A stretch of 54,277 bases of DNA from positions 1 to 54,277 of the forward strand of contig CABMII010000100.1 of assembly GCA_902386255.1 (NCBI GenBank), in the 5' to 3' direction. Below the pieces are notes generated by a model that searched no databases, was not told the origin of the DNA, and saw only the letters and a program-made list of their open reading frames with translations. Positions 47,268-51,707 of the stretch are shown in pieces; the stretch's first letter is position 1; the number at the start of each line of letters is the position of its first letter. This stretch comes from an uncultured archaeon. Its GTDB lineage: Archaea; Halobacteriota; Methanosarcinia; Methanosarcinales; Methanoperedenaceae. A program made the position numbers and the translations under genes.

Positions 47268-47273
47268 AGATTT

Positions 47274-47294
47274 AACCGCAGATGAACGCAGATA
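47274..47294 (+). repeat. Short dispersed repeat 'AACCGCAGATGAACGCAGAT'
   Basis: This copy follows hppA immediately. An inverted, longer copy lies at 51343-51372, so the two bracket the TPR gene. Repeats of this look are often seen between genes in environmental archaea and bacteria; their function is unknown. Confidence 0.65.
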
Positions 47295-47508
47295 CCATGC
47301 TGCTCACATAACATGCAAACTGAACTTTGATGAGGCGCAGATAATGGCTTTGCACACTATCCTGACTATGTGGTGCGAATCAAGTCCCTGGTAGGACTGC
47401 TTTATCCAGCTGCAATCCCTCTTTTGCGATGGAGGATGCAAAGGCACTGCGCGAAGTGCGGTTGTAGGCATTCAAATAAAGTTTTCATAAAAAGTGAGTA
47501 TATTATAT
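47295..47508. other. Intergenic stretch with a short gene-like fragment
   Basis: Between hppA and the TPR gene the plus strand reads NFDEAQIMALHTILTMWCES before a stop near 47393, with no start of its own beyond a few codons. It may be the relic of a protein gene. I see no tRNA, terminator or other motif in this stretch. Confidence 0.25.
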
Positions 47509-47640
47509 ATGAAACGCATCTATACTGCCAACAGCCAAATTGGAATGTATATGTAGCACATATGTGACGAGTTAGCTGAAATTGCAGTTGAACATGCAAA
47601 AACGTTAGATGCCATGCCATTAAAATCGAAAGGTGAATGA
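47509..47640 (+). other. Tiny ORF with in-frame TAG, coupled to the TPR gene
   Basis: Starting at ATG 47509 the frame encodes MKRIYTANSQIGMYM, then TAG at 47554, then HICDELAEIAVEHAKTLDAM and MPLKSKGE-type sequence to TGA at 47638. The TGA overlaps the TPR gene's ATG (ATGA). The part after TAG is hydrophilic and protein-like. It may be a 43-residue leader gene broken by a nonsense mutation, the relic of a larger partner gene, or a frame in which TAG is read through. I cannot decide which. Confidence 0.3.
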
Positions 47641-50600
47641 AGGTGCTTACTAAAAAACATGCGTTAAATCTACTAGAAATTTTAGCAACTGTCTCAATCA
47701 CCGGAGTCGGTTTTGCGATTGGTGGAACAATTGGCGCAGCAGTCATGGCAGGTATCGGCATCAATCTAAGCACCAATATAATTCAGAGCGGCGGTGCAAA
47801 GCTCAAAGAAAGATGGCTGACAAGCAATGACGGTATACTCAACCACGATATTCAAAAAGCTTTATCCCATGCTTTTATCAAAGCCTTGACTCATCTGGAG
47901 ACAGAGTACTTCAAACTGAGTGAAGCAGATGCACTCCCAAAAAATGAAAAGGAATCTATCAAAGCATTTTTCAAAGAGTTAAAGGAAGAAGCACAAGAAG
48001 CTTTCCCCGCCTTCTTAGAAAAAGCAATGAAGGATCAAGAGATTAAGGAATATCTTTACGGAGGACAAGAGTCAGCTACAGATAAGCTTTGGGAGCGCAT
48101 TAACGGAACAAACCTTCTATGCACCTACTGCGACCACTTCAGGGATTTTTTTCACAATAATTTGCTAAACGAAGTGCAGCTATGGTTTACCGAAGAGTTG
48201 AAGACAGATAGTAAGGAGTCCAACAAGGCATGGCGTGCCTTTCAACGATTACTTTTGGAAGGTATACAGGCGGATGTGAAAGCTGTGCAGGCAAGTCAGG
48301 ACTTAATCCAGCGAGATTTGCAAACGCTGGAGGTACTGAGAAATCAATTAGAGCAATTAAAAGATACGATTGACCATCGCTTGCCCAATGAACCATTTCA
48401 GGGAGGCTTGGAAAAGGCGATTAGCGATATGCGGGTGGTTTTACAGGATGTTGCCAAAACTACCCAGCGAACGGAAGAAAAGGTTGATGCTATTGCTGTC
48501 GATGTTAAAACGCTACTGGATGCAAAGACGGAAGTAAAGATCCCAAAGATACCAGATGATATTCAGAAGCTTTTCGATGAGGGGTGGGCACTACGAAGCA
48601 TGGGTAAGTTTGAAGATGCGAGAACTGTGTTTCAAAAGTCATTAGAGCTTGCTACCAACTATGATAACGATCTTGCCGCAGCAAGAGCTAAACACCGCCT
48701 GGCAGCCATCATGTATGAATGGGATAAGAATTTTGATGCAGCAAAGAATTTACTGAAAGAGTGCCTACAGGCATACAGGGCGGTCCATTCAGAGAAAGAC
48801 ATTGCAGCCGCTTTACAAAGCTTTGGTATGATTGAAACAGATGCCGGAAATCTGGATCAGGCAGATGCCTATCTTTCTCAAGCCTTAGAAATTAAAAAGA
48901 AACGTGAGGATAAGCTTGATATTGCAGAAACACTCCATGCTATAGGTTGGGTTGAAGATCATCGTGGTCACTTAAAGCAAGCACTCGAATTGTACGATCA
49001 GGCACTGAAATATTTTTTAGGTGAGTGTGAGAAAGGACCCGCCAAAACAGAACAAGAAGCAAGTCTTGGCGTTGCCAATTGCTATCATCACAAGGCAATG
49101 ATTTATGAGCGCCAAGGGAAAATAGAAAACGCGGAATCAAACTACCTGCGAGCGCTTGAATGGTGTCGCAAGTCTGGGTACAAGCCAAATATTGGCAAAA
49201 TACTCTTTCTGCTTGCTGAATTGAAATTTCGTGAAGCCCAATATGAGACAGGGATCCCTTTCCTTGATGAAGCTTTCGGCATCTACTATGAGATTGGAGA
49301 CCGTGCTTGGCAAGCTCGATGTTTTGACATTCAAGGACGGCTAAATTTCATACTCGGACAAAAAGACAAAGCAACTGAAATTTTTAAATCTGCCCTTCAG
49401 TTGGTAGAAGAATCTGGCGATTACAAAGAACAAAATAAATATCTGAGTAAGCTAGGCCACATTTATATGGAGGATGGGCAATTTGAAAAGGCCAAAGGTT
49501 ATTTTGAACGGGCAAAGGACTTATCACTTCGAGAAGAGTTGCTTGAAGGCTATGTAGCCGCCGTTGGAAGTTTGGCAGAGATTGCTCATATCGAGAAGAA
49601 CCTGGATGAAAGAAACAAGTTGCTTTCAGATTGTATCGAAACGCTGGAAAAACTTCTGCCTTCAACCCAATCTGAACCCAGACGAGCCTACATAATTGGT
49701 CAAATAGGTTTCGCCTATGAGATAATGGGCAACTTTCAGAAAGCGTTGGTTTATTACCAAAAGTCAAAGGCCGCTTTTGAGTCTATATCTAACACTATCG
49801 GTATTGCTAAATGTTTGGGTTCTATCGCTCACCTGAAAGGATTGTTGGGAAAGAGAAATGAAGAATTTGATCTATACCGAGAACTCCAGAAATTCATTGA
49901 TGGTTCATCGTACTATGACCTCATCGCAGAAGTTAATATGAATCTTGGTGAGATTCACATGCGAATTGGCAATTTAGATGAAGCGAAGATACTATTTGGA
50001 GAGGCTGAATTTCTTTGCCAGAGATATAATCTGCACCGTCTACCCCATGTAAAGGAATCAATCCGACGTCTTCAAGAACAGATCAATTTAAGGAAGCCCC
50101 CAGCATTAAACTTCAAACAACTAATAAACGAACTATTTGAATTAATCAATTGGTTTCCTGAGGCGAAGGACAGTATCTTCAGACTATGGATGTGGGGGAG
50201 AAAAGAAGCTTTACTTGGTAATTATCGCAATACTGTTGGTATTAAGTTTATGCTCTGCCAGAATGATGTGGATACTTTCCTGAAAATATCAAGACATCTC
50301 CAAACATATTCAGATTTATGTTTGCAAGTAGCAAGTTCTGAATACCCTGGTTCAGTAATTGATTTGATTCCTTTCCCGAAGAATAAGGAAATATTCTTTG
50401 AATGCTCACTCGTCACTATTAAAGAAGTAGCGGGAGGGAATGCCTGGATGATGAACAAGGAAAATTTCTTCGAAATCTTCGAAAAATATTATTCCAGTAT
50501 TGTAACCCGATATATTTTAACAAGCGATACCGCACGATCAGAATCAACAGGAAACGAAGGAGCAATAATAGCGGGCTGGTCGCTCGATTTACCTGACCAA

Positions 50601-51053
50601 GCTCATCAGCTTATTCTTTCAAGCTCACCGGCAGAACTCATAGATAAGAAGATATTCTTTCTACCATACGAAAGACATCTTGCTAATGACAAACTATTAT
50701 CCGACCTCAGACACAGTAAAGAACTTGGTCTCATACCGATCTATTTTGGCTCTTTGCCTAATTCCGAGAGCGTCGAGGTCTTGACTTCGACTACGATAGG
50801 TTTGCCAGTTCTGTTGCCGGATGACGCAGAACATCAGCGAAAACAAATCAGGAAAGTTAAACACAGCTTTTCTCAAATGTTGTCTGTTACCAAAGAATCA
50901 GCGCAATCTTCTCTAAACAATTTTATCTTTGAAATTGAGGAGTTGTCCGATATTTGTGTGGGTAAGCAATCGCTTAAGATCCAAATTTACATTCTTGATT
51001 TTCCTAGCGTGTTGAAAAGAGAATTACACATTGCATTGGTAATGACCGATTAA
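47637..51053 (+). CDS. 1138-aa tetratricopeptide-repeat protein with N-terminal glycine-rich hydrophobic segment
   Basis: Residues 10-50 are hydrophobic and glycine-rich (ITGVGFAIGGTIGAAVMAGI), resembling a membrane-insertion helix. A helical region and a coiled coil follow (about 225-305: LRNQLEQLKDTI, TTQRTEEKVDAIAVDVKTLL). From about 315 to 850 there are some twelve TPR units of the NPHP3 type (FEDARTVFQKSLELA; LDQADAYLSQALEIKKK; FEKAKGYFERAKDLS). The last 290 residues form an unrecognised globular domain. No Walker A or nuclease motif is visible. GGTGA lies too close to the ATG, so GTG 47643 may be the real start. Its function is unknown; a scaffold or sensor role is inferred from the TPRs. 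Confidence 0.75.
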   Translation: MKVLTKKHALNLLEILATVSITGVGFAIGGTIGAAVMAGIGINLSTNIIQSGGAKLKERWLTSNDGILNHDIQKALSHAFIKALTHLETEYFKLSEADALPKNEKESIKAFFKELKEEAQEAFPAFLEKAMKDQEIKEYLYGGQESATDKLWERINGTNLLCTYCDHFRDFFHNNLLNEVQLWFTEELKTDSKESNKAWRAFQRLLLEGIQADVKAVQASQDLIQRDLQTLEVLRNQLEQLKDTIDHRLPNEPFQGGLEKAISDMRVVLQDVAKTTQRTEEKVDAIAVDVKTLLDAKTEVKIPKIPDDIQKLFDEGWALRSMGKFEDARTVFQKSLELATNYDNDLAAARAKHRLAAIMYEWDKNFDAAKNLLKECLQAYRAVHSEKDIAAALQSFGMIETDAGNLDQADAYLSQALEIKKKREDKLDIAETLHAIGWVEDHRGHLKQALELYDQALKYFLGECEKGPAKTEQEASLGVANCYHHKAMIYERQGKIENAESNYLRALEWCRKSGYKPNIGKILFLLAELKFREAQYETGIPFLDEAFGIYYEIGDRAWQARCFDIQGRLNFILGQKDKATEIFKSALQLVEESGDYKEQNKYLSKLGHIYMEDGQFEKAKGYFERAKDLSLREELLEGYVAAVGSLAEIAHIEKNLDERNKLLSDCIETLEKLLPSTQSEPRRAYIIGQIGFAYEIMGNFQKALVYYQKSKAAFESISNTIGIAKCLGSIAHLKGLLGKRNEEFDLYRELQKFIDGSSYYDLIAEVNMNLGEIHMRIGNLDEAKILFGEAEFLCQRYNLHRLPHVKESIRRLQEQINLRKPPALNFKQLINELFELINWFPEAKDSIFRLWMWGRKEALLGNYRNTVGIKFMLCQNDVDTFLKISRHLQTYSDLCLQVASSEYPGSVIDLIPFPKNKEIFFECSLVTIKEVAGGNAWMMNKENFFEIFEKYYSSIVTRYILTSDTARSESTGNEGAIIAGWSLDLPDQAHQLILSSSPAELIDKKIFFLPYERHLANDKLLSDLRHSKELGLIPIYFGSLPNSESVEVLTSTTIGLPVLLPDDAEHQRKQIRKVKHSFSQMLSVTKESAQSSLNNFIFEIEELSDICVGKQSLKIQIYILDFPSVLKRELHIALVMTD

Positions 51054-51132
51054 CAAACAAGTTCAAAAGAAAAAGAGATACAACATCAAGGCAATGTCAC
51101 TTAACAAAGATAATCTCGTTTTGGGACTCCGC

Positions 51133-51285
51133 CTAAGTTCGATTCCGTTTCGCTCCAGCAAAAGTCATAAGTGCACTGACATTCCACGATATGCCGAGCC
51201 TTTTCAGGAATTCCTTCTGAGTTATGCCATGATTCTCATTCACCATCCGCAATATAGCTCCTAACTTATGGATTTCACTTCCCAT
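51133..51285 (-). CDS. Possible 50-aa helix-turn-helix peptide or fragment
   Basis: The minus strand encodes 50 residues beginning MGSEIHKLGAILRMVNENHG, then ITQKEFLKRLGIS, which reads like a helix-turn-helix pair. No good SD precedes the ATG (AAGG directly abuts it), and the C-terminus runs out after 20 unremarkable residues. It may be a regulator remnant. It stands in the 654-base gap between the TPR gene and cofE. Confidence 0.35.
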   Translation of the reverse strand: MGSEIHKLGAILRMVNENHGITQKEFLKRLGISWNVSALMTFAGAKRNRT

Positions 51286-51342
51286 CCTTAGAGTACACGG
51301 AAAAATAATTTATCCAATTGTATTCATAATACCTGACAACAA

Positions 51343-51372
51343 ATCTGCGTTCATCTGCGTTTATCTGCGGTT
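51343..51372 (-). repeat. Dispersed repeat, inverted copy of the element at 47274
   Basis: ATCTGCGTTCATCTGCG continues to ATCTGCGGTT. Its reverse complement begins AACCGCAGAT and contains the ACGCAGATGAACGCAGAT series seen after hppA. Three tandem GCAGAT-type units are present here. A more degenerate relative (TGTCTGCGTTTTTAATC...TTATCTGTGGTG) lies at 51601-51659. Confidence 0.65.
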
Positions 51373-51443
51373 CGTGATTTCGATATGCATAAGCTGCATC
51401 GGTTTCCTATCGGCGCGCCCGACAGTTGGAAATATTTAAGTTT

Positions 51444-51475
51444 GAGTTCGTACGAGTTCGTATATGTTCGTTGTT
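51444..51475 (-). repeat. Single arm of the 'CGTACGAACT' hairpin repeat
   Basis: These 32 bases match the reverse complement of the left arm at 40732-40763 at 30 positions; the difference is TTA against TAT in the middle. Here the partner arm is missing. As at the first site, a copy of the 31-nt CTTTGCG repeat follows closely, at 51489. Confidence 0.75.
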
Positions 51476-51488
51476 CATTTTCTCTCTC

Positions 51489-51519
51489 CTTTGCGGTCTT
51501 TGCGTGCTTTGCGGTGAAT
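51489..51519 (-). repeat. 31-nt dispersed repeat copy
   Basis: CTTTGCGGTCTTTGCG continues to GCTTTGCGGTGAAT. It has the same length and the same ends as the copy at 40847-40877, and both follow a TACGAACT-type element in the same order. This suggests that the two repeat families travel as a pair. Confidence 0.7.
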
Positions 51520-51707
51520 AATGCCGAGGTGGATGCATCGGATTTCTTATCGGGCGCCGCAAATTAATCGCTCATTATTTATAATTTTATATTTCAACTT
51601 TGTGCGTTCTTAGCGGTGTTGTCTGCGTTTTTAATCTTCATTTATCTGTGGTGTTCAATTAGAAAGCATTATTATTCCTCCTGCATTTAAGGGGGCGAGG
51701 AATCCGA

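What the first reader, a model, noticed from the sequence alone, without database searches (positions are those of the whole stretch)
47637..51053. Orphan TPR protein with a membrane-inserting-like N-terminus and novel C-terminal domain
It is an insertion between two housekeeping genes. A glycine-rich hydrophobic segment, coiled coil, about twelve TPRs and an unrecognised 290-residue domain form an architecture like sensor-effector proteins of defence or stress systems, but without an NTPase. The C-terminal domain may be new.
Basis: inference. Interest (0 to 1): 0.5.

Follow-up and report, generated by a model that had tools for sequence, protein, structure and literature searches.

The report
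Orphan archaeal TPR protein, ends unknown
A gene inserted between two housekeeping genes of an archaeon encodes a large protein whose middle is an ordinary protein-binding repeat array but whose two ends match nothing searched here; it has no detectable ATP-using switch and no clear defence genes beside it, so a defence role is possible but unproven.

Summary
ORF 47637-51053 (+) encodes 1138 aa: a hydrophobic Gly-rich start (about 9-46), a predicted helical region to about 300, twelve TPRs (about 309-797) and an unrecognised C-terminus of 290-340 residues. It lies in an insertion: in three congeneric genomes, including the closest by flank DNA, the flanking genes (H+-pyrophosphatase, cofE) are 6-12 bp apart; here 4386 bp lie between them, with inverted copies of a repeat near its ends. 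Both ends are orphans: no accepted Pfam, NCBIfam, PADLOC, PHROG or PDB match, and no convincing relative in the genomes, plasmids, phages and contig collections searched. Distant bacterial relatives are not excluded. No P-loop or NTPase family was found. The C-terminus is not VMAP-C (controls worked); likeness of the N-terminus to haloarchaeal STAND-TPR proteins is not supported. Five of the eight best same-order TPR matches look like NTPase-TPR proteins, which keeps a sensor/conflict reading alive, but the neighbours are mostly housekeeping genes. Best reading: an accessory, probably membrane-attached TPR adaptor/sensor with a new C-terminal domain; function is inferred only. Single-sequence structure models were unusable, so whether the C-terminal fold is new is open.

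The parts
47273..51658 (.). 4386-bp stretch absent from three congeneric genomes (insertion between H+-pyrophosphatase and cofE)
   Evidence: in G010, G001 and G022 the window sequence up to 47272, 47276 and 47269 and from 51659 on is joined through 12, 6 and 11 bp (size as against G010)
47273..47293 (+). left-edge repeat copy (TAACCGCAGATGAACGCAGAT)
   Evidence: inverted-repeat pairs I1 and I2
51336..51640 (.). dispersed repeat region; contains the inverted partner of the left-edge repeat (51343-51372), about 290 bp inside the right end of the insertion
   Evidence: I1/I2; query 5137-5440 matches many places in G000 and other congeneric genomes, 69-100% identity
47637..51053 (+). orphan TPR protein, 1138 aa (start may be GTG 47643)
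   Evidence: open-frame probability, codon-position composition; start context
47661..47774 (+). residues 9-46, Gly/Ala-rich hydrophobic segment, possible membrane anchor
47637..48554 (+). residues 1-306, orphan N-terminal region, predicted all-helical
   Evidence: no accepted family, no convincing relative; helical, pLDDT 47.8
48246..48524 (+). residues 204-296, coiled-coil-like heptad stretches
   Evidence: crude score; helices 193-248 and 257-295
48561..50027 (+). residues 309-797, twelve TPR units
   Evidence: (TPR_12 E 2.5e-45), (closest solved chains GPSM2/LGN, Pins, kinesin light chain)
   Evidence: searches (residues 850-1138 or parts; 804-1138): no accepted family, no convincing relative; (not VMAP-C)

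Best explanation
An accessory, recently acquired (or lineage-specific) TPR adaptor or sensor protein that sits on the inner face of the cell membrane. Shown: the ORF, the TPR array, the hydrophobic start, the lack of a detectable NTPase, the insertion and the repeats near its ends. Inferred: the N-terminal hydrophobic segment tethers it to the membrane; the helical/coiled-coil region lets it form oligomers; the TPR groove captures a partner peptide or protein; binding is passed to the C-terminal 290-340-residue domain, which carries the specific activity (binding or effector). Since it lacks a detectable NTPase, switching would depend on ligand-driven oligomerisation or unmasking rather than a nucleotide cycle. 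Its sporadic occurrence fits a conflict/stress accessory gene better than core metabolism, but no evidence ties it to phage defence.
For: Twelve TPRs; hydrophobic segment near the start with basic residues on both sides; helical N-terminal model (low confidence); no P-loop or Walker-B pattern and no NTPase family; by its C-terminus it is found in none of 98 other relatives and none of 391 other phylum genomes, two overlapping sets; insertion with empty sites; repeats near its ends; GC3 0.39 against 0.50 and 0.47 in the two flanking genes. Methanoperedens plasmid HMp_v1 encodes four TPR proteins, one a membrane protein and two membrane-attached and cytoplasm-facing (PMC9674854, passage read); relevant if the host is that genus, which I infer.
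Against: No partner gene, no expression data, no homologue to show conservation of the ends; a singleton could be decaying or weakly functional. Hydropathy is only moderate (maximum 1.85) and the glycine zipper is not beyond composition. GC3 0.39 lies inside the range of the 40 window frames tabulated (0.26-0.56), so foreign origin is not shown.
Confidence: 0.4

Rival explanations
1. NTPase-less sensor-effector of an antiviral or cell-death system: the N-terminal helical region is a membrane-perforating domain (of the kind of Bell/HeLo helical bundles), the TPRs sense, and the C-terminus senses or regulates; trigger-induced clustering kills the infected cell.
For: Order of parts (hydrophobic helix, helical region, repeats) resembles NLR/STAND-TPR proteins; 5 of the 8 best non-self TPR matches in 60 relatives look by eye like NTPase-TPR proteins; sporadic insertion. 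[quoted passage not shown] N-terminus scored above 150 of 150 shuffles and 23 control stretches against haloarchaeal STAND N-termini, but see against.
Against: No NTPase; no clear defence genes among the neighbours scanned; PADLOC hits of the protein are TPR-only; the likeness to haloarchaeal STAND N-termini is matched by the reversed sequence (21.7 against 21.3); no Bell/HeLo sequences were available to compare.
Confidence: 0.2
2. Constitutive scaffold/adaptor for a cellular process (cell envelope, appendage assembly, signalling), like LGN/GPSM2 or kinesin-light-chain TPR scaffolds, with the C-terminus a second binding domain and no effector activity.
For: Closest solved TPR chains are GPSM2/LGN, Pins and kinesin light chain, with some engineered TPRs; none of the few catalytic patterns tried is present.
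Against: Not found in any other genome searched by its C-terminus, which is unusual for a core scaffold; no conserved partner beside it.
Confidence: 0.25
3. A stranded cargo or relic gene brought by a plasmid or other mobile element and now drifting; it has little function in this host.
For: Repeats near the ends of the insertion; intergenic parts hold short, broken-looking frames; an upstream frame overlapping the ATG is interrupted by a TAG and has no good match elsewhere.
Against: The 1138-codon frame is intact, with TPR signal along its middle.
Confidence: 0.15

Closest known systems
NTPase-TPR proteins of the same genus (loci L107, L111, L112, L113) and of a haloarchaeal plasmid (L036, nSTAND_NTPase5 + TPR)
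   Same: TPR arrays; 26, 26, 29, 27% identity and 25% over the aligned part of the array
   Different: They have an NTPase segment (L036 by Pfam; the others read by eye); this protein has none detectable, and has a C-terminal region after the TPRs that these frames lack
TPR proteins of Methanoperedens HMp plasmids (PMC9674854, passages read)
   Same: Four on HMp_v1, of which one is described as a membrane protein and two as membrane-attached, cytoplasm-facing
   Different: Sequences not available here, so not compared; the family labels seen there (SPO22/NARP1, ChAPs) are not among the 25 best Pfam matches shown for this protein
VMAP proteins (variable N-terminus, mostly helical middle, VMAP-C end)
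   Same: Same general layout of three parts (PMC7159879, passages)
   Different: C-terminus is not VMAP-C by profile comparison with working positive controls; no MoxR or vWA gene among the neighbours scanned
GPSM2/LGN, Pins, kinesin light chain (solved TPR scaffolds)
   Same: Best sequence matches of the TPR array in the PDB (E 5.1e-14 for GPSM2)
   Different: Only the repeats match; ends unrelated

Membership tests
TPR repeat proteins | tandem 34-residue helix-turn-helix units with TPR consensus | tested here: met
   TPR_12 E 2.5e-45 (score 153, cut-off 30.1 bits); 12 units laid out
STAND / NLR-like NTPase-TPR receptors | P-loop NTPase (NB-ARC/NACHT/nSTAND) between effector and repeats | tested here: not met
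   no NTPase among the 25 best Pfam matches of the whole protein, in NCBIfam, or in separate Pfam scans of residues 1-306 and 850-1138 at E<=10; no GxxxxGK[ST] or hhhhD[DE]
STAND / NLR-like NTPase-TPR receptors | recognisable N-terminal effector or signalling domain | tested here: not met
   no accepted family for residues 1-306; against 12 haloarchaeal STAND N-termini it scores 21.7, above 150 shuffles and 23 controls but level with its own reversal, 21.3
VMAP (vWA-MoxR ternary systems) | VMAP-C domain | tested here: not met
   hhalign score 11.4 against a 16-member profile (best of 60 shuffles 19.5, reversed 15.0), while 15 of 15 comparisons with members held out or from another clade scored 46-192; one of the 16 was itself checked by Pfam, the rest are its tblastn relatives
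VMAP (vWA-MoxR ternary systems) | MoxR AAA and vWA genes adjacent | tested here: not met
   of 10 neighbours scanned, 8 matched Pfam: malic enzyme, DUF166, DFP/flavoprotein, ThrRS, radical SAM, F420 ligase, HD, GNAT; 2 matched nothing. The pyrophosphatase is named from recall of its sequence
CHAT/caspase-TPR proteases | C-terminal CHAT/caspase domain | tested here: not met
   no such family in the Pfam scans (25 best of the whole protein; C-terminus alone at E<=10)
Bell/HeLo membrane-killing helical bundles | four-helix bundle with hydrophobic N-terminal helix, usually plus amyloid motif | tested here: inconclusive
   helical low-confidence model (pLDDT 47.8); no HeLo-type Pfam match at E<=10; no Bell sequences on hand
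Known anti-phage defence systems | match to a defence family or location in a defence island | tested here: not met
   PADLOC hits of the protein lie in the TPRs only; of 10 neighbours scanned, one has a dGTPase-model match at 2e-8 (the HD protein) and three have matches at 0.003-0.006

The most novel reading that the evidence does not exclude
The C-terminal 290-340 residues are a new domain (possibly a new fold) and the protein is the first seen of an NTPase-independent class: a membrane-anchored TPR sensor that couples ligand capture directly to a C-terminal effector, spread between archaea as single-gene cargo.
Probability: 0.15. Interest if true: 0.6.

Novelty: new variant of a known kind. 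Interest (0 to 1): 0.27.

Why it matters
If the C-terminal domain is new and active, it would add an unrecognised domain and a switchless (no NTPase) design to the TPR sensor repertoire of uncultured archaea. As it stands it is one of about ten TPR_12-bearing frames of its genome (10 contigs with matches at E<=1e-5); its value is as a candidate with a clean empty site for comparison.

Tried and rejected
VMAP-C for the C-terminus: suggested by eye (co-linear short motifs and layout). A real VMAP-C protein was found (PF20028 E 5.7e-37) and profiles built. Our C-terminus scored 15.4 against an 8-member profile (best of 60 shuffles 24.1) and 11.4 against 16 members (best of 60 shuffles 19.5), while 15 of 15 positive-control comparisons succeeded. 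Rejected. PF20028 was also sought in 99 relatives: none over its cut-off.

Haloarchaeal STAND-TPR N-terminus: a first pairwise look gave E 0.15 and a 4-sequence profile P 0.019. With 12 members the score (21.7) beat 150 of 150 shuffles and all 23 control stretches (maximum 19.6), but the reversed sequence scored 21.3, and the aligned part moved from residues 38-60 to the coiled coil at 225-259. Not accepted, though not excluded.

Weak hits looked at and dismissed as chance (gene names from recall of the sequences): N-terminal hit in G005 (L004) lies opposite frames I read as mobB and argS and contains a stop; N-terminal hit in G139 (L075) lies in a frame I read as a phytoene desaturase; C-terminal hits in G060 and G457 lie opposite a frame I read as carS and contain stops; the upstream-peptide hit in G023 overlaps, out of frame, the start of an unrelated 157-residue frame. 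Not examined: the other 59 non-self genomes with N-terminal hits at E<=1 (best E 0.0057), the other 17 non-self genomes with C-terminal hits at E<=5 (E 0.012-0.5), and four of the five non-self genomes (best E 0.035).

Structures: C-terminus (residues 838-1138) pLDDT 32.6, N-terminus 47.8, both from single sequences; fold searches were therefore not run. Pattern-based collection scans need exact 8-residue words and find close relatives only.
Full report
What is there. The window is contig 100 of a 2.6-Mb, 172-contig genome. The open frame 47637-51053 (+) is exactly as described, 1138 codons, and cannot be chance (about 5e-32 at this GC). The genus has 31 genomes held. I infer an archaeon of the genus Methanoperedens from the gene content (archaeal ThrRS editing domain and F420 ligase; pyrophosphatase), but no tool named it.

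Anatomy. Residues 9-46 are hydrophobic and rich in Gly and Ala (maximum 19-residue hydropathy 1.85). Residues to about 300 are predicted helical, with heptad-like windows within 204-297; the model has mean pLDDT 47.8, so this is only secondary structure, and the heptad score also picks a window inside the TPRs. Residues 309-797 hold twelve TPR units. Residues from about 804 to 1138 match no accepted family: residues 850-1138 were scanned alone against NCBIfam, PADLOC, PDB, Pfam and PHROGs. The best Pfam scores for that end (Pox_I6 E 0.004, Nup84 0.014) and for residues 1-306 (AAR2 0.012) are below their cut-offs. There is no GxxxxGK[ST], no hhhhD[DE] and no NTPase family in the scans, so 'without an NTPase' is right as far as sequence can tell.

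Insertion. DNA around the gene was compared with all 31 genomes of the genus, and six stretches from five other genomes were read. In G010 (88% identical DNA over the pyrophosphatase end, the highest of all), G001 and G022, the pyrophosphatase end and the cofE side are 12, 6 and 11 bp apart; in G002 they are 876 bp apart; in G006 the two lie on different contigs, so that site cannot be read. Against G010 the window carries 4386 bp in place of 12 (47273-51658). The insert begins with a 21-nt repeat whose inverted partner lies at 51343-51372, about 290 bp inside its right end; 51336-51640 is repeated widely in this and related genomes. No frame of 80 codons or more lies in the insert apart from the TPR gene and frames that overlap it, so it holds no whole transposase or integrase of that size. 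GC3 of the gene (0.39) is below the two flanking genes (0.50, 0.47) but inside the range of the window, so foreign origin is plausible, not shown.

Relatives. C-terminus (289 aa): 1 of 99 relatives at E<=0.01 and 1 of 392 phylum genomes at E<=0.001, in both cases the window's own genome. A longer query (335 aa) at E<=5 gave 20 of 199 genomes including its own; the best two others are chance antisense matches with stops, the other 17 were not examined. N-terminus (306 aa): 2 of 99 at E<=0.01, its own and a chance hit; 61 of 392 at E<=1 including its own, best other E 0.0057; one of these 60 others was examined and dismissed. No match in plasmids for either end at E<=0.1, none in phages for the whole protein at E<=1e-3, none in genome contigs or viral contigs by word-based scans. 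Bacterial chromosomes were reached only by those word-based scans, so distant bacterial relatives are not excluded.

The TPR array by itself matches many proteins: 16 of 72,556 plasmid records at E<=1e-10, 22-27% identity, and 21 of 60 relatives at E<=1e-8, its own among them. Of the eight best non-self places, five (L107, L110, L111, L112, L113) show a P-loop-like NTPase segment before the repeats, judged by eye, not by Pfam; for L110 only the two ends of the frame were printed. One search printed nine frames in full (some cut by the locus end); four of these nine show such a segment. The closest solved chains are GPSM2/LGN, Pins, engineered TPRs and kinesin light chain.

Neighbourhood. Of 10 neighbours scanned, eight matched Pfam: malic enzyme, DUF166, flavoprotein/DFP, ThrRS, radical SAM, F420 ligase, HD protein, GNAT; two matched nothing. 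PADLOC on 10 neighbours (the pyrophosphatase in place of the GNAT) gave one match at 2e-8 (a dGTPase model on the HD protein) and three at 0.003-0.006. This is not a recognisable defence island, although the contig ends 3.2 kb downstream, so one side is barely visible.

Filing tests. VMAP: described as an N-terminal region, a variable, almost always all-helical middle and a VMAP-C end (PMC7159879, passages), which resembles this layout. Against a profile of 16 members our C-terminus scored 11.4 (best of 60 shuffles 19.5, reversed 15.0), whereas 6 of 6 held-out and 9 of 9 cross-clade members scored 46 to 192. So it is not a detectable VMAP-C. STAND N-terminus: 11 of 392 genomes carry relatives of the haloarchaeal region, 4 of them only at its far end; our N-terminus beat 150 of 150 shuffles and 23 of 23 control stretches (21.7; maxima 19.4 and 19.6) but its own reversal scored 21.3, so I do not accept it. 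Bell/HeLo: described as a helical bundle with a hydrophobic helix (PMC7889193 and PMC9815663, passages), which fits loosely but could not be tested.

Literature. Five searches; passages were read in five papers (PMC8195603, PMC7159879, PMC9815663, PMC7889193, PMC9674854). The last reports that Methanoperedens plasmid HMp_v1 encodes four TPR proteins, one a membrane protein and two membrane-attached and cytoplasm-facing. That is the nearest printed parallel I met, and a possible kind of source for the insert if the host is that genus. I did not meet this protein in those listings and passages; no wider claim is made.

Mechanism. Shown: TPR array, hydrophobic start, no detectable NTPase, insertion. 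Inferred: membrane attachment, oligomerisation through the helical part, partner capture by TPRs, specific activity in the C-terminal domain. I give 0.4 to an accessory membrane-attached adaptor/sensor, 0.25 to a plain scaffold, 0.2 to a defence sensor-effector, 0.15 to a drifting relic.

Verdict. The protein is an orphan at both ends within the searches made, which I believe (general knowledge, not tested) is not rare for large repeat proteins of uncultured archaea. Interest 0.27.

Noticed in passing
window 47554-47640 (+): A short frame (CDELAEIAVEHAKTLDAMPLKSKGE, stop TGA) overlaps the TPR start codon as ATGA, as in translationally coupled operons, but an in-frame TAG interrupts it and the best match in 59 other relatives is E 0.035.
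   Followed up: partly
window 47632-47645: Shine-Dalgarno-like GGTGA directly abuts the ATG at 47637 and lies 6 nt before a GTG at 47643, so the real start may be that GTG.
   Followed up: no
window 51336-51640: Dispersed repeat with matches at many places in this genome and in other genomes of the genus, 69-100% identity; an unknown repeat family.
   Followed up: partly
window 47304-47476: Intergenic stretch with 77-85% identical copies elsewhere in congeneric genomes (G002, G003, G006, G013, G014), encoding a Cys-containing peptide in one frame; possibly a mobile-element remnant.
   Followed up: no
window 51125-51290 (-), approximate: Short frame MGSEIHKLGAILRMVNENHGITQKEFLKRLGISWNVSALMTFAGAKRNRT, looks like a small or truncated helix-turn-helix protein.
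   Followed up: no
L036, L103, L104, L146-L152, L157, L159: Haloarchaeal STAND-TPR proteins share an N-terminal region (NL-x-A-x-G near the start in 7 of 12 aligned); in L036, the only one scanned, Pfam named the NTPase (nSTAND_NTPase5) and TPRs but not this region. 11 of 392 phylum genomes have matches, 4 of them only at its far end.
   Followed up: partly
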